Shown here piece by piece: positions 16,449-32,424 of a stretch of 64,000 nucleotides of DNA. The position numbers and the translations under genes are program-made. The notes under the pieces were generated by a model. That model searched no databases. It saw only the letters and a program-made list of their open reading frames with translations, and was not told the origin of the DNA. The stretch spans positions 103,003 through 167,002 of the forward strand of contig JAFEAT010000011.1 of the NCBI GenBank assembly GCA_018266255.1, given 5' to 3'. Position 1 is the first letter of the stretch. Every line of letters begins with the position of its first letter. The DNA comes from Cyanobacteria bacterium SZAS-4. GTDB taxonomy: Bacteria; Cyanobacteriota; Vampirovibrionia; Obscuribacterales; Obscuribacteraceae.

Positions 16449-17801
16449 CTAGGTATCCATAGAAGCTTGAACGGTGCGAGGATCGACCTTGCTCAATTCG
16501 ATGTCTGGATTGACTTCTCTAAATTTGTTCAAGTCCCATTTTGTTTTGAACAGCAGCACGGGATCTTCAAACTTATCCGTTGCGATTGTATAGCCAGAGC
16601 GGCTCGTCGCAGTCTTCATCGTCTCCCATGCGCCAACCGGCCAGAGCGCGGTATGCATGTCTACCGTTCGAAGAATGGTGGCAACACCATACTCAGACTG
16701 CAGTCGGAATTGAACGACTTCGAATTGCAGTGGACCCACAGCAGCTAGCAATGGTATGCGAGTATCTCGCTCTGTCATCCAGAGAATTTGGATGGCACCT
16801 TCGTCTTGCAGTGCCGTAATTCCCTTGTGGAATTGTTTATATCGGCTCGGTTCCTTGTTTTCGAGAAATGCGAAAAGTTCTGGTGCGAATGTTGGAATGC
16901 CTGGAAAGTTTATCTTCTTGCCACTACTTATGGTATCGCCTATGGCAAATGCGCCGGGATTGCTGAAGCCGACAATGTCGCCAGGAAATGCTTCTTCGAT
17001 CGATTGACGTTCTTTTGCAAATAGTTTCTTTGGTTGACTGAGCTGAATCGTTCGACCGCTTCGGCTATTTGTCACGTCCATATCTTTTACGAACATGCCT
17101 GAGCAAACTCGAACGAAGGCGATGCGGTCTCTGTGCCGTGGGTCCATGTTTGCTTGCAACTTGAAAACAAAACCTGTGAAGTCAGGAAATGTGGTTGGCA
17201 CAATTCCCTCTGCTGACGAAAAGGCGCCTGGTCTGAGAGACAGTTCGATGAATGAACGCAGGAATAATTCAACACCGAAATTGTTCATCGCGCTGCCGAA
17301 ATAAATTGGCGTCAAAGTGCCGTTGTGTATCTTCTCTAAATCGAGAGGGTGCGCGGCTGCATCGAGAATTTCCAGCTCTTCCATCAACTGCTCGTACAAA
17401 TGCGTCGGAATTAATTCCTTCACTTTTGGATCGTCGAGCTCGTACGTTGCTACTTCTGCTTTTGTACGCCCTCCAACTGAGCGCTCGAACAAATAAACGA
17501 CCTTCGATCCTCTGTCTACAACGCCTTTGAATTGGTCGCCCGTGCCGATTGGCCAATTGACAGGGTAGGTCGCAAGATTGAATTCCTTTTCCACTTCGTC
17601 TATCAGTTCCAGTGGTTCACGACTGGGTCGATCTAATTTGTTTATGAAAGTGAAGAGGGGAATTTTTCGCAGCCGACACACTTCGAACAATTTGCGCGTT
17701 TGCGGCTCCAGTCCCTTAGCTGCGTCAATCAGCATGACCGCGTTGTCTGCAGCGGCGAGGGTTCTATAAGTGTCTTCGCTGAAGTCCTGGTGACCAGGAG
17801 T
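16449..17801 (-). pseudogene. prfC: Peptide chain release factor 3, N-terminus missing
   Basis: RF3 is the GTPase that releases class I release factors from the ribosome. The frame matches RF3 from the G3 motif onward (TPGHQDFSEDTYRTLAAAD at the very upstream end), then NKLD (G4), the RF3 hallmark FTGFVFKLQANMDPRHRDRIAF, PGDIVGFSNPG and the C-terminal domain to the normal end. The first ~85 residues, with the GTP-binding P-loop and switch I, are absent: upstream of 17801 the frame stays open but no longer resembles RF3. The first in-frame ATG (17735) would give 428 residues instead of the usual ~530. Without a P-loop it cannot bind GTP normally. The break adjoins a broken antiporter gene, so this is a deletion or an assembly join. 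Confidence 0.85.
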
Positions 17802-18754
17802 AATGCGCTCAAGGTTCCGAGCAAACTCTTTCCGATGATCAACGCCAGGACGAATATAAAAACTTCTGCGATGTGATTTCCAATGAAACGTGGATCCAGA
17901 AGCATTCCAATCGAGACGAAAAATACCGTGGCAAACAAATCGCGCAGCGGCAGCACGTCAGTTAGTGCCTGATGAATGTAGGGAGATTCGCTCAGCATTA
18001 TGCCAGCCAAAAACGCTCCCAGCGCAATTGATAATCCAAGACTCTGGCTTAACAGCGCAACTGAGAGACACAAAACAATCAAGGTGAGCAGGAATAATTC
18101 TCTGCTGTTCGACTTGGCTGAAAATTTCACAACATGAGGCACCACTTTTGTGGCACCGACAATGATCAATAGTAAGAACAAGACAGCTTTACCTGCCGAC
18201 ATCAGAAAGTCGGTGTAATTCGCATTTGCGGTTTCCTGAAGCACTGGCAGAAACGGAATGATCAGCACGAGGCTCAGGTCTTGAACTAGAGCCAGAGGAA
18301 TCAAAATTTGACCGTGGATTGAGTCTGTCTCACCCCGTTCGCTCAGCACCTTCGAGATGATCACGCTACTGGAGATGGCGCAAACACAACCGAACAGAAA
18401 TCCTGCTGCCACGGTTGGTGCCAGACCTATAGTCGATGCAAGCCACCACGCAGCAGCGATAGTGAGCACCATCTGTGTGCTGCCGGCTAAAAGAATCTTC
18501 TTGGCGGAAGACATGATTTGTTTGAGCGACAGGTCGACGCCGAGCGCGAAGAGCAGCATGGCTACTCCAAACTCGCTGATCACTTTGATTTGTTCGACCT
18601 GATTGATCAGCTTCAGCCCGTGTGGGCCGATTGCGATTCCCGCCAACATATATCCAGCCATAACCGGCTGCTTAGCTGCGATACAGATGTATCCGGCGAT
18701 TAATGCGGCGCACCAGATGATCGCCAGATCAGCGATCAATTGAAATTCATTCAT
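17729..18754 (-). pseudogene. CPA2-family (KefB/YbaL-like) cation/proton antiporter, C-terminus missing
   Basis: An inner-membrane Na+(K+)/H+ antiporter of the CPA2 family. Ten or so hydrophobic segments are visible from MNEFQLIADLAIIW through FGVAMLLFALGVDLS, a VQDLSLVLIIP segment with the conserved Asp, and SLGLSIALGAFLAGIMLSES. Similarity stops at about 17800, just after FVLALIIGKSLLGT. The family would continue with more helices and often a cytosolic TrkA-N domain; here the frame enters the release-factor sequence in another phase and stops at 17729. The start is ATG 18754 with GAGG seven bases upstream. It lacks about a third or more of the usual protein and is probably inactive, unless the join is an assembly error. 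Confidence 0.8.
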
Positions 18755-23571: not shown

Positions 23572-25164
23572 ATGCGTCTGTTAAAAGGGTTCGCGCTGAG
23601 TGTTTTGTTGCTCGGTGCCTTGCAGCAGTTCCAATCGCCGGCAGTTGCCGAGGTTAGCTGTGTCGCTGAGATCAAAGATTCCCCTACGGTTGCACCTGCG
23701 CATCCTGGCATTGTTTTTCACCAGTATTATTTGGGGTGTTTATCGCACGCATCCTATTTAATCGGCGATGAGGCTACCAAGACAGCTGTGGTTATTGACC
23801 CGCAGCGCGATGTCGACCAGTACATTGAAGACGCTAAGAAGAATGGCATGAAGATCACGCACGTGTTTTTGACCCACGTGCATGCAGACTTCGTCGCTGG
23901 TCACCTGGAGCTCGAGCGCAAGACCGGCGCCAAGATTTGTTTGGGCGCGAAGACTAACGCCAGTTACAAATTCACTGGCTTCAAAGACGGCGATACGCTT
24001 GAATTCGGCAATATTCGTTTCAAAACGCTCGAAACGCCGGGGCACACGCCCGAGGCAATTTCCATCCTTGTATATGATTTGAAGAAGGATGCGAAGACGC
24101 CATACGCAGTTCTAACCGGCGATTGTCTTTTCATCGGCGATGTCGGTCGCCCGGATCTGTTGTCGTCGCAAGGCATTACAGCTAAGCAATTGGCTGGACT
24201 GATGTACGATTCGCTGCACAACAAACTCATGGTTTTGCCAGATGAAACGCTGGTCTACCCCGCTCACGGCGCTGGATCTTTGTGCGGAAAAAATATGAGT
24301 TCGGAAACTGTTTCGACAATTGGTGAGCAAAAACGCACTAATTACGCGCTGCAACCGATGAGCAAGGAAAAGTTGGTTGAGCTCCTCACAAAAGATTTGC
24401 CACCCGCTCCTAAATATTTTGCCTATGATGCGGCGTTCAATTGTAAGGCGCATCCACCATTAGAAGAGTTGCTGAGCAATTTGAAACCACTTTCGATCGA
24501 CGAAGCGTTGAAATTGAAAAATTCTGGTGCCTATTTGTTGGATGGTCGCAACTCCGACCAATATGCTAAACAGCATGTCGTCGACAGCATAAATATTCCT
24601 CTCAAAGGAAGATACGCAACGTGGGCGGGAACGTTTATCGATCACGATAAACCAGTTGTCGTCATTGCTGATGCGGGGCAAGAACGCGAAGCTGCAATGC
24701 GTCTTGGTCGCATCGGTTTGGATTCAGTTGCTGGATACGTTGGTGGTGGCATCAAGGCATTCGACGGCAGAACCGATTTGGTACGTAGCAACGAGCGGGT
24801 CGATGCTAAAACCCTGGCGAAGCAATTGCAATCGGATAAACCGCCTTACGTTATCGATGTGCGCAACGATGGAGAATGGCAAGCAGCGCATCTGGAGAAA
24901 ACGCACCATCTGCCTTTGAATGACATTTTGGATCACGTCGATAGTTTGCCGAAAGACCAAGATCTCGTCATCATGTGCGCATCAGGTAATCGTTCGTCCA
25001 CGGCAGCGAGCTTGCTCAGCCAACGCGGCGTAAAGCATTTGACCGACCTGGCAGGCGGCATCGAGGGCTGGCAGGCAGAAAAACTTCCAGTGATTTCGCA
25101 AGGTTCGTGCTCGACAAAACCACTGGACAAAGAACCATCTAGCTCGACCGCGAAGCCACAATAG
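23572..25164 (+). CDS. Exported MBL-fold persulfide dioxygenase-like protein with two rhodanese domains
   Basis: A fusion of a metallo-beta-lactamase-fold domain (about residues 45-265) and two rhodanese domains (about 300-400 and 415-510), after a signal peptide (LLGALQQFQSPAVAEV). The MBL metal ligands read THVHADFVAGH, ETPGHTPE and GDCLFIGDVGR, as in ETHE1-type persulfide dioxygenases, which oxidise glutathione persulfide to sulfite with O2. The second rhodanese has the active-site loop CASGNRSS with Cys; the first has ADAGQE without Cys and is probably inactive. GGAGG lies seven bases before the ATG. It is the first gene of the sulfur/respiration operon, so it may deliver sulfite to the next enzyme. 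Export of such a protein is unusual. Confidence 0.87.
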   Translation: MRLLKGFALSVLLLGALQQFQSPAVAEVSCVAEIKDSPTVAPAHPGIVFHQYYLGCLSHASYLIGDEATKTAVVIDPQRDVDQYIEDAKKNGMKITHVFLTHVHADFVAGHLELERKTGAKICLGAKTNASYKFTGFKDGDTLEFGNIRFKTLETPGHTPEAISILVYDLKKDAKTPYAVLTGDCLFIGDVGRPDLLSSQGITAKQLAGLMYDSLHNKLMVLPDETLVYPAHGAGSLCGKNMSSETVSTIGEQKRTNYALQPMSKEKLVELLTKDLPPAPKYFAYDAAFNCKAHPPLEELLSNLKPLSIDEALKLKNSGAYLLDGRNSDQYAKQHVVDSINIPLKGRYATWAGTFIDHDKPVVVIADAGQEREAAMRLGRIGLDSVAGYVGGGIKAFDGRTDLVRSNERVDAKTLAKQLQSDKPPYVIDVRNDGEWQAAHLEKTHHLPLNDILDHVDSLPKDQDLVIMCASGNRSSTAASLLSQRGVKHLTDLAGGIEGWQAEKLPVISQGSCSTKPLDKEPSSSTAKPQ

Positions 25165-25177
25165 TCGATCTTCCTTG

Positions 25178-26431
25178 ATGATTTTGAAACCAGAAGAACT
25201 GCAAGATCCAAAACCAGAAGGTGATGCCGTCAGCCGCAGGCGATTTCTTCAACTGGCTTCGGCTGCTGCAATGTCTGGCGCGTTCAGTGCGTGTCACTCT
25301 CAATATACGAATACCAGTTTCATTAGCGTGCCGCCGGGTCAAACGGTGGCACGTTTTCCTGAAAAGGCTGAATTGTTGTTGTTGACGGACAGACCGCCAC
25401 AATTAGAGACGCCGATACATTATTTTCGAGAAGATTTAACTCCTAACGAAGCATTCTTCGTGCGGTGGCACTATGAGGGAATTCCTACTTACATAGACTT
25501 GCGTACGTTCCGATTGAAGGTGGGCGGTCACGTGGATAAACCACTGACATTGACTCTGGACGAATTGAAACATCAGTTCGACGCGACAAGTATTGTTGCT
25601 GTCAATCAATGTTCAGGCAACTCACGCAGCCTTTTCCTGCCGCGAGTTCCAGGTGGGCAATGGAAGAATGGCGCGATGGGAAATGCGCGATGGACAGGCG
25701 TTCGCCTGAAGGATTTGTTGCAACGCGCTGGTGTTAAATCTGGTGCTGTAGATGTGAGCTTCGGAGGGCTCGACGAAGCACCGCTCTTCAACATGAGTAA
25801 ATTCGTCAAAGCGTTGGGCATCGAACATGCGCTCAGCGATGAAGTGCTGGTGGCATATTCGATGAATGATAAACCGCTTCCGATGCTTAATGGATTCCCA
25901 CTGCGTCTGGTGGTGCCGGGCTGGTATGCCACTTACTGGGTTAAATCTCTTGCCTCTATTAAGGTACTGCCAGAGAAATTCCATGGATTTTGGATGGACA
26001 AAGCTTATCTGATTCCAAAAAATGCAGATGCCGTAGAAACACCCGAAAATCTTGCCACTGATACCGTTCCGATCAATAAGATGAATGTCAGATCGCTGAT
26101 TGTCAGCCCTGATCTTCCCGATCTGGTAAGAGCTGGTGCAACCGCTGAAATTCAAGGCATCGCGTTTGATTCTGGATCTGGTATCAGCAAGGTTGAAGTT
26201 TCAATTGATGGTGGCAAAAATTGGCAAGCGGCGACACTCGATTCTGATGCGTTAGGAAAGTATTCTTTTCGCAGATTTCGCTTGCCCTGGACGCCGCAAA
26301 GTTCTGGTGCATATCAATTGGCGTCTCGTGCTTACACCAATGATGGAAAATTTCAGCGCGTATTCGATCAATGGAACAAGAGTGGCTATATGAGAAATGT
26401 AATAGAGCAGCGGGAAGTGACGGTAATTTAG
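25178..26431 (+). CDS. SorA/SoxC-like molybdenum sulfite dehydrogenase
   Basis: A Tat-exported molybdopterin enzyme of the sulfite-oxidase family. The twin-arginine motif is SRRRFLQLA. The Moco domain has the Cys that ligates Mo in VAVNQCSGNSRS (Cys145), followed by GGQWKNGAMGNARWTG. The C-terminal ~110 residues form the Ig-like dimerisation domain (GIAFDSGSGISKVEVSIDGGKNW). Length near 417 is typical. The reaction expected is sulfite to sulfate with electrons to cytochrome c, and a cytochrome c gene follows without a gap. A SoxC role (sulfur dehydrogenase in the Sox complex) is possible, but no soxXYZAB genes are here. ATG 25178 is chosen over TTG 25175. Confidence 0.88.
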   Translation: MILKPEELQDPKPEGDAVSRRRFLQLASAAAMSGAFSACHSQYTNTSFISVPPGQTVARFPEKAELLLLTDRPPQLETPIHYFREDLTPNEAFFVRWHYEGIPTYIDLRTFRLKVGGHVDKPLTLTLDELKHQFDATSIVAVNQCSGNSRSLFLPRVPGGQWKNGAMGNARWTGVRLKDLLQRAGVKSGAVDVSFGGLDEAPLFNMSKFVKALGIEHALSDEVLVAYSMNDKPLPMLNGFPLRLVVPGWYATYWVKSLASIKVLPEKFHGFWMDKAYLIPKNADAVETPENLATDTVPINKMNVRSLIVSPDLPDLVRAGATAEIQGIAFDSGSGISKVEVSIDGGKNWQAATLDSDALGKYSFRRFRLPWTPQSSGAYQLASRAYTNDGKFQRVFDQWNKSGYMRNVIEQREVTVI

Positions 26432-26860
26432 ATGATAACGAGGAAACAGCTTTTAGCTTTAGTTGGATTTGTGATTCTGGGGGCGATCATCATTTGGATT
26501 GGTCGTGATGATCCATCGCAACGTCCCAAAATTGAAGAGCAACCGCCTGTACAAACACCAGTGACGCAGCCATCGACGCAATCTGACTTCAATCAAATCA
26601 CGCTGCCTCACGACGACCCAGAATTTCCACCAGGACCTGGACGCGAGTTGTTCTTAGCCCGCTGCACAGTGTGTCATTCACTGCGCTACATCACAATGCA
26701 ACCAAACTTTTCGAAGAAGGTGTGGGCGAAAGAAGTAGCAAAAATGATCAACACATACAAGGCACACATCACTGGCGAAGAAGCAAGAGAAATAATCAAC
26801 TACCTGGCCACTGTAAAAGGCACCGACCAAGATGGAGCATCAAATAGCAAGCTGAAATGA
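26432..26860 (+). CDS. Membrane-anchored cytochrome c, SorB-like partner of the sulfite dehydrogenase
   Basis: A 142-residue protein with an N-terminal membrane anchor (LLALVGFVILGAIIIWIG), a Pro/Gln-rich linker and a single heme-c domain: CTVCH, with a candidate distal Met in TMQPNF. It begins at the base after the preceding stop codon and its own stop overlaps the oxidase start (ATGA), so the three are coupled. It resembles the SorB/SoxD type that takes electrons from the molybdenum enzyme. Here it would pass them straight to the oxidase encoded next. Confidence 0.85.
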   Translation: MITRKQLLALVGFVILGAIIIWIGRDDPSQRPKIEEQPPVQTPVTQPSTQSDFNQITLPHDDPEFPPGPGRELFLARCTVCHSLRYITMQPNFSKKVWAKEVAKMINTYKAHITGEEAREIINYLATVKGTDQDGASNSKLK

Positions 26861-29577
26861 CCGAGTTCCCCGCAGCTCCGACTAACACCGCCAAGCCGCA
26901 AATTCTAAGCGGCTTGATAAAAGCTCACGGTCTGGCCGCGCTAGTTACATTGCTAATTTCCGCATTTTTCGGTTTGCTAGTTTCCATCAAAATGCATCAT
27001 CCCGACTTCGCCGGAAACGACTCATGGTTGACGTGGGGGCGCTTGCGTTACAACCACACGCAAGGAATATTTTTCGGATGGCTCGGAAATGCATTTTTGA
27101 TGTTCTTGTACTATGCAGTGCCGAAGTTATCACTCCGCTCCGTCACCAACAAGCAACTCGGATGGTGTCTGTTCGCATTGTGGAATTTTGCTGTAGTCCT
27201 TCCAGGCTGGCTCCTGGTGCTGGCTGGGTTCAGTCAACCACTGGAGTGGGGTGAATTTCCACTGATAGTAGATGCATTTGTCGTTGTTGCATTTATTATG
27301 ATGATCGTTCAATTTGCATTTCCACTATTGAAAGGAAAACTTTCGCACCTCTATGTATCGGGTTGGTACATCATAGGCTCACTCTTTTTTACAGCTTTAG
27401 CTTATCCTGTAGGAAATATCGCGCCGCAGCTGCTTCCAGGTGCTCAGGGAGCCGCTTTTAGCGGGCTGTGGATTCATGATGCGATTGGTCTCTACGTCAC
27501 TCCGCTGGCGGTAGCGATTGCATATTTTGTGATTCCAGTGGCAACGCGTCGGCCAATTAACAGTCATTTCCTTTCGATGATCGGCTTTTGGATTTTGTTC
27601 TTCACTTATCCACTAAACGGAACGCACCACTATATCTTCTCCGCTATTCCAATGGATGCGCAGAGTGGTGCCATCGCCGCGTCCGTCTACTTAGGACTGG
27701 ATGTAGTGCTTGTTGTGACCAATCTGCTTCTCTCGCTCCGCGGCTCCGGCGAGTCAATCAAGAATGATGTATCGCTTCGGTTTGTTTGGATGGGTGTCAT
27801 CCTCTATTTGATTGTCAGCTTGCAAGGTTCGCTGCAAGCCTTGATGCCGCTCAATAAACTCGTGCACTTTAGCGATTGGGTGATCGGACATTCTCATCTT
27901 GCGATGCTGGGATTTGCCTCTTTTATCGCAGTTGGTGGCATGTCTCACGTTTGGCAACGAATCCCGGGACTGCGCTTCAACGCCAGGGCTTTGACGTGGT
28001 GCTACTGGCTAATGCTCAGCGGAATGGTCACGATGGTGGCAGTGCTGACACTGGCTGGTCTTGTCGAATCACATCTCTGGCAAAGTTCGTTGCCGTGGTT
28101 AGATTCTGTGCGCACAGTTAAGCACTATTGGGTGGCGCGCACGTTTGCTGCAATTCCGGTTTTGGCTGGTTTCGTGTGTCTCTGGATTTCTTTGACGTCG
28201 GGACCTGTAACTTCAGATGAGAATGCGGAAAAGGCAGGCGGATTGTCTTTCGAGCAACCGACATTTCGCGATGCTGCGTCGGTAGCTGCAACGCCGGCGG
28301 CATCATCGGCAACATCCACAGACAAGTCAGTCACAGGTGATGGCGGTGCGAAATGGCTGAACATGGCATATCTATCTGCGTCTCTCGCTGGTTTTGGTTT
28401 CTTCATTTTTTCATTTGCGGTTCTCGGAATTATTCCTGGAATGGCCTTAGAAAAAGAAGTTGCACGAACAAAACCTGCAGTGATGTTGCCACCTACTCCA
28501 CAACAACAAGCAGGAAGAATAGTTTATGCCCGCGAGGGTTGTGCCTACTGCCACACTCAACAAGTGCGAGTAGTGACCTCTGATGTACAGCGATTCGGAG
28601 CTCCCACCAAAGCTTGGGAGACTCAGTACGAGTATCCGCAGCTTTGGGGCACCAGACGCGTAGGTCCAGACCTTGCTCGCGAGAGTGGTATCAGATCAGA
28701 CGATTGGCAGTTGACCCATTTGTATAATCCACGCCTTGTTGTGGCAGATTCTATGATGCCAGGCTACCCATGGTTGTTTGATGGATCAGCAGCTAAACCT
28801 AGCAAAGATGCAGCTGATCTTCTTCAGTACGTTAAGTCACTTGGACATGCCAGACAACTGGCGGGCAACGGGGCCGATCAGTTTACTTTGGCCGTCAATT
28901 GCGCTTGCCCGGACGATGTAAAAAAGCTCGAAACGGAACAAACTGCGATAGATGCAAGTGCCTCCATGCCGAGACGCTCACACAGCGGTCTGGCAGTTGA
29001 ATTGCCCACCGACCCAACTCAACTTGCTACTGATGCGCGACGGGGGCAAAAAATATACGCTCAGAATTGTGCCACCTGTCATGGTGCCACTGGCGGTGGC
29101 GATGGCGTTGCAGCAGCGACGCTGCTTCCCAAACCTGCTGATCTGACTGCGAGCAAAATTTCTGTTGCAGGACTCAGCTCGATCATCATGAACGGTATGC
29201 CCGGTACCGCCATGCCTGCTTGGCGTGATATGCCCCAGCGTGATGTTGAGGGGCTGATCGCTTACCTCACCACATTGCCTAAAGCTGAGACGCCAGTGGA
29301 GGTTTCTGCTGCAGATTTGGAGAGTGGAAAGCGGTTGTTTGCTCAACAATGTGTTTCATGCCATGGCACTACTGGTAATGGCAGTGGTCCAGCCTCTGGC
29401 AATTTGGCTAGATGTCCTACGAATTTTATCGAAGAACAACCTTCAACTCAGGATGCAATGAACGCGCTCGAAAATGGTGTTGCTGGAACGTCCATGCCAC
29501 CATGGCGCTTGCAACTTTCAGAGGAAGAACGCAGACAGCTCACTGCATATGTTCGCACCCTGTATCGAGGGATGTAA
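26857..29577 (+). CDS. cbb3-type cytochrome c oxidase, CcoN-CcoO-CcoP fused in one chain
   Basis: A 906-residue terminal oxidase. Residues ~20-450 are the twelve-helix heme-copper subunit (CcoN): heme-b His in RLRYNHTQGIFFGW, the CuB/His region LWIHDAIGLYVTP, GTHHYIFSA, and the double-His helix VIGHSHLAMLG. Then comes a Ser/Ala-rich linker, one membrane helix (~500-535) and a CcoO-like mono-heme domain with GCAYCHTQQV (heme Cys562). The remaining ~190 residues hold two more heme-c domains, CATCHG (Cys738) and CVSCHG (Cys832), matching the di-heme part of CcoP. Normally these are three proteins. It reduces O2 with high affinity and pumps protons. CcoP's own membrane helix is not seen. Confidence 0.9.
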   Translation: MTEFPAAPTNTAKPQILSGLIKAHGLAALVTLLISAFFGLLVSIKMHHPDFAGNDSWLTWGRLRYNHTQGIFFGWLGNAFLMFLYYAVPKLSLRSVTNKQLGWCLFALWNFAVVLPGWLLVLAGFSQPLEWGEFPLIVDAFVVVAFIMMIVQFAFPLLKGKLSHLYVSGWYIIGSLFFTALAYPVGNIAPQLLPGAQGAAFSGLWIHDAIGLYVTPLAVAIAYFVIPVATRRPINSHFLSMIGFWILFFTYPLNGTHHYIFSAIPMDAQSGAIAASVYLGLDVVLVVTNLLLSLRGSGESIKNDVSLRFVWMGVILYLIVSLQGSLQALMPLNKLVHFSDWVIGHSHLAMLGFASFIAVGGMSHVWQRIPGLRFNARALTWCYWLMLSGMVTMVAVLTLAGLVESHLWQSSLPWLDSVRTVKHYWVARTFAAIPVLAGFVCLWISLTSGPVTSDENAEKAGGLSFEQPTFRDAASVAATPAASSATSTDKSVTGDGGAKWLNMAYLSASLAGFGFFIFSFAVLGIIPGMALEKEVARTKPAVMLPPTPQQQAGRIVYAREGCAYCHTQQVRVVTSDVQRFGAPTKAWETQYEYPQLWGTRRVGPDLARESGIRSDDWQLTHLYNPRLVVADSMMPGYPWLFDGSAAKPSKDAADLLQYVKSLGHARQLAGNGADQFTLAVNCACPDDVKKLETEQTAIDASASMPRRSHSGLAVELPTDPTQLATDARRGQKIYAQNCATCHGATGGGDGVAAATLLPKPADLTASKISVAGLSSIIMNGMPGTAMPAWRDMPQRDVEGLIAYLTTLPKAETPVEVSAADLESGKRLFAQQCVSCHGTTGNGSGPASGNLARCPTNFIEEQPSTQDAMNALENGVAGTSMPPWRLQLSEEERRQLTAYVRTLYRGM

Positions 29578-32359: not shown

Positions 32360-32424
32360 GTCGGTACTTAATTACTTGCGTCTAGTCTACAATGTTTAAT
32401 TCGTTATCAAGTTCGGAGAACGAT

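What the first reader, a model, noticed from the sequence alone, without database searches (positions are those of the whole stretch)
17729..17830. Antiporter 5' part joined to release factor 3 3' part
On the minus strand a CPA2 antiporter loses similarity at about 17800-17810 and, within a few bases and in a different phase, RF3 similarity begins at its G3 motif. The lost pieces are the antiporter C-terminal third and the RF3 P-loop region. Both genes are cut by a single event, so this is a clean deletion of a segment, or an assembly join. If real, the cell has lost RF3 GTPase function and one antiporter.
Basis: partly seen in the sequence, partly recalled or inferred. Interest (0 to 1): 0.72.

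Follow-up and report, generated by a model that had tools for sequence, protein, structure and literature searches.

The report
Deletion fusing antiporter and RF3 remnants
In this uncultured relative of cyanobacteria, a single gap of about 1.3 kb relative to its closest held relative has removed the end of an ion-transporter gene and the start of the neighbouring release factor 3 gene; it is an ordinary, apparently very recent gene loss, unless it is an assembly error, which sequence alone cannot exclude.

Summary
On the minus strand a CPA2 (Kef-type) cation/proton antiporter is intact up to about window 17802. From 17801 the sequence is prfC (release factor 3), in another frame, starting at the second residue of the G3 motif DTPGH. 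A congener (G002) carries the two intact genes in the same order with 122 bp between them. Against it the window lacks 1281 bp: antiporter residues 318-601, the spacer, and RF3 residues 1-102 (P-loop, switch I, the G3 aspartate). Gene order is conserved on both sides. The missing pieces are nowhere else in the 41-contig genome. The two parent sites in G002 share no long repeat, only words of chance length, so neither repeat-mediated recombination nor a repeat-driven assembler misjoin is indicated. The remnants show no relaxed selection (11 lineage-specific RF3 changes against 15 and 17 in the sisters), so the event is either very recent or not real. RF3 is patchy in this family (15 of 36 genomes), so losing it is unremarkable. 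Best explanation: a recent illegitimate deletion inactivating both genes. Rival: an assembly or minority-strain artefact, which needs reads. Interest is low.

The parts
17802..18754 (-). 5' part of a CPA2 (KefB/KefC/YbaL-like) monovalent cation:proton antiporter, residues 1 to about 317 of about 600; C-terminal membrane segments and TrkA-N domain missing
   Evidence: PF00999 4-312/375 and TIGR00932; 88% identical to G002 residues 1-309; no PF02254
17801..17802 (-). Deletion junction: antiporter ...GAGCGCATT | ACTCCTGGTCACCAGG... prfC; 1281 bp missing against G002
   Evidence: base-level comparison with G002 and G001
16449..17801 (-). 3' part of prfC (peptide chain release factor 3), from Thr of the G3 motif (G002 residue 103) to its stop; no frameshift or internal stop
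   Evidence: TIGR00503 87-524/527, RF3_C PF16658, 92% identity to G002
17729..17801 (-). Out-of-frame tail of the antiporter ORF read through prfC sequence, ending in a TGA at 17731-17729 that overlaps the first ATG left in the RF3 frame (17735; an internal Met in intact RF3)
   Evidence: ORF list and three-frame translation

Best explanation
A single illegitimate deletion of about 1.28 kb joined the 5' half of a Kef-type antiporter gene to the 3' four fifths of its downstream neighbour prfC, leaving two non-functional remnants. Shown: one junction, conserved gene order on both sides, intact ancestral-type arrangement in a congener, and no second copy of the lost pieces. Inferred: the molecular process (end joining or replication slippage with at most 1-2 bp of shared sequence), the recency, and loss of function. 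The RF3 remnant lacks the P-loop, switch I and the G3 Asp, so it should not bind GTP. The antiporter remnant lacks its last membrane segments and its regulatory TrkA-N domain.
For: G002 carries antiporter (601 aa), 122 bp, prfC (558 aa) at the syntenic place and orientation. The window is collinear with G002 C31 across most of its 64 kb, on both sides of the junction. Protein and DNA searches with the lost segment find only paralogues in G000. The two parental breakpoint sequences have no shared word longer than 8 bp within 60 bp, which is chance level, so a k-mer repeat misjoin by a short-read assembler has no obvious cause. Other window genes with G002 orthologues are essentially full length, with no clear frameshift. 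RF3 loss is tolerated: only 15 of 36 family genomes pass the prfC cut-off, 72 of 191 bacterial genomes lacked it and E. coli survives its inactivation (PMC1780047).
Against: The remnants show no sign of decay: lineage-specific RF3 changes are 11 (window), 15 and 17 (intact sisters), with no frameshift. A real lesion must therefore be very young (my rough bound: the last couple of percent of the branch) or present in only part of the population. The genome is a draft that looks like a MAG (88% complete, 41 contigs), and no reads are held. The ancestral arrangement rests on one congener, since G001 lacks the antiporter at this place.
Confidence: 0.7

Rival explanations
1. Assembly or consensus artefact: the organism has both genes intact, and an assembler, polisher or chimeric read collapsed the 1.28 kb segment, or picked a minority strain carrying the deletion.
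For: No relaxation of selection in either remnant; draft multi-contig genome; no read data.
Against: No N gap, no long repeat at the breakpoints in the relative, synteny otherwise clean over the window, and the missing segment does not appear on any other contig or contig end.
Confidence: 0.25
2. A functional rearrangement: the truncated RF3, started from Met125 (G002 numbering) and coupled to the antiporter stop by the ATGCTGA overlap, is still expressed and retained for a GTP-independent role.
For: The remnant frame is open and still conserved; a start codon overlaps the upstream stop.
Against: That ATG is simply the conserved internal Met of intact RF3 (same residue in the G001 and G002 translations). 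The remnant lacks the P-loop, switch I and the G3 Asp. Conservation is equally explained by a recent event.
Confidence: 0.05

Closest known systems
Peptide chain release factor 3 (prfC, TIGR00503 / NF001964)
   Same: Domain 2, RF3_C and the GTPase domain from G3 onwards; above the family cut-off
   Different: Lacks residues 1-102 (G1 P-loop, G2/switch I, first residue of G3)
CPA2 antiporters KefB/KefC/YbaL (PF00999 + PF02254)
   Same: First about 317 residues, 88% identical to the congener's full-length protein
   Different: No C-terminal end of the membrane domain and no TrkA-N domain; ends in about 23 out-of-frame residues
Ordinary deletion pseudogenes / patchy loss of RF3 in bacteria (PMC1780047)
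   Same: RF3 is absent from many bacterial groups and dispensable in E. coli
   Different: Here the loss would be caught early, with most of the gene still in place and undecayed

Membership tests
Functional RF3 (TIGR00503) | Sequence above the curated cut-off | tested here: met
   560 bits against a cut-off of 466.95, over positions 87-524
Functional RF3 (TIGR00503) | Complete GTPase domain with P-loop, switch I and DTPGH | tested here: not met
   PF00009 matched only from position 76; the first 102 residues of the congener's protein are absent
Functional CPA2/Kef antiporter | Full membrane domain (PF00999 1-375) | tested here: not met
   PF00999 4-312 only
Functional CPA2/Kef antiporter | C-terminal TrkA-N domain, present in the congener | tested here: not met
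   absent in the window, present in the G002 homologue; elsewhere in G000 only paralogues at 29-34% identity
Single deletion event | Intact genes in the same order and orientation in a close relative, with conserved flanks | tested here: met
   G002 C31
Real (biological) junction | Reads span the junction | not testable with these tools
   no reads held

The most novel reading that the evidence does not exclude
A lineage caught just after losing RF3 by deletion, with most of the gene still undecayed: a natural before/after pair with its congeners for asking how termination adapts (for example in RF1/RF2 or stop-codon context) when RF3 disappears, in a family where the gene is patchy.
Probability: 0.4. 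Interest if true: 0.3.

Novelty: new member of a known kind. Interest (0 to 1): 0.16.

Why it matters
If real, it is one recent instance of RF3 loss in an Obscuribacterales-type family, where the gene is patchy, and could serve as a comparison for studying life without RF3. If it is an assembly error, it is a warning that the absence of RF3 or the antiporter should not be inferred from this genome.

Tried and rejected
Lost pieces moved elsewhere in the genome: rejected, since three searches with protein and DNA found only translational-GTPase and TrkA-type paralogues. Repeat-mediated deletion: the perfect 15-base inverted repeat TCCTGGTCACCAGGA next to the junction looked suggestive, but it is codon choice for TPGHQD within prfC and also occurs in the intact prfC locus L018; the 8-bp CACCAGGA shared by both parent sites in G002 is of chance length and lies downstream of the observed crossover. 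Older pseudogene: rejected, because there is no excess of amino-acid changes. An apparent second frameshift near 32400 is, on my reading, a spurious N-terminal ORF extension antisense to a conserved neighbouring gene. dN/dS by Bio.codonalign failed because dS was saturated, so codon-position and lineage-specific counts were used instead. A first outgroup comparison used wrongly oriented loci and was replaced.

Full report
What is there. On the minus strand the ORF running from 18754 to 17729 begins as a CPA2 cation:proton antiporter (TIGR00932, PF00999 positions 4-312 of 375). It follows its relatives to ...GKSLLGTLSAL and then runs out of frame to a TGA at 17729. Overlapping this tail, in another phase, the sequence is prfC from TPGHQDFSEDTYRTL onwards to its stop at 16449 (TIGR00503 87-524 of 527). 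I place the junction at 17801/17802.

What it was. The search covered 60 genomes including the window's own, and only two congeners are held. The named records closest by RF3 (63-83% identical) are mostly Candidatus Obscuribacter, Obscuribacterales and other Melainabacteria/Cyanobacteriota MAGs, so the organism is an Obscuribacterales-type bacterium (inference). Congener G002 has the antiporter (601 aa, with TrkA_N) followed after 122 bp by prfC (558 aa) on the same strand and in the same neighbourhood. Against G002 the window lacks 1281 bp: antiporter residues 318-601, the spacer and RF3 residues 1-102. The other congener, G001, has an intact prfC at the syntenic place but no antiporter there, so the antiporter is itself a variable gene.

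Nothing was moved. The antiporter C-terminal half, the RF3 N-terminus and the intervening DNA were each searched in G000. Only paralogues were found, at 29-34% identity for the TrkA-type domains and 33-46% for the translational GTPases.

How it arose. The parental sequences, judged from G002, share no repeat at the breakpoints beyond words of chance length, and at the crossover itself at most 1-2 bases. That fits illegitimate joining and gives a repeat-collapsing assembler no obvious reason to make the join. The perfect inverted repeat TCCTGGTCACCAGGA beside the junction is part of the prfC coding sequence for TPGHQD and occurs in an intact prfC too, so I give it no role. The true ancestor of the window's own lineage is not known, so a slightly longer microhomology cannot be excluded.

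When. The retained 447 RF3 codons carry 11 window-specific amino-acid changes, against 15 and 17 specific to the intact sisters. Only 1 of the 11 is at a site invariant in nine outgroups, differences concentrate at third codon positions, and there is no frameshift. With about half of third positions different between the species, a gene free of selection for even a few percent of that time should show a visible excess; my rough hand estimate is an upper bound near 2% of the branch. The lesion is therefore very young, restricted to some strains, or not real. The genome is a 41-contig draft, 88% complete, and no reads are held, so this cannot be settled here. Clean synteny and full-length genes elsewhere in the window, the absence of Ns, and the absence of a repeat make a real deletion more likely than not.

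Consequences. The RF3 remnant has no P-loop, no switch I and no G3 Asp. Restarted at the conserved internal Met at 17735 it would lack most of the nucleotide site. The antiporter remnant lacks the last part of its membrane domain and its TrkA-N domain. Both are presumed non-functional (inference). RF3 is dispensable and patchy in bacteria (119 of 191 genomes had it; PMC1780047), and in this family 15 of 36 genomes pass the prfC cut-off (my count, including G000 itself and contig-split cases; many are incomplete drafts). Loss of RF3 here is therefore ordinary.

Verdict.

Noticed in passing
23572-29577 (+): A block with no DNA match at the syntenic place in G002: a metallo-beta-lactamase/rhodanese protein (persulfide dioxygenase-like), a molybdopterin sulfite-oxidase-like protein, a small cytochrome c, and a 906-aa protein that looks like a fused cbb3 oxidase CcoN-CcoO with extra cytochrome c domains (named by eye from the translation, not by a search).
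   Followed up: no
17785-17799: Perfect 7-bp inverted repeat with a 1-nt centre (TCCTGGTCACCAGGA) in the prfC G3 codons; also in the intact prfC locus L018.
   Followed up: yes
L037 / L038 upstream of prfC: The antiporter gene next to prfC is present in G002 and the window but absent there in G001, so it is gained or lost within the genus.
   Followed up: partly
whole family: prfC is patchy: 15 of 36 family genomes pass the cut-off, suggesting repeated loss.
   Followed up: partly
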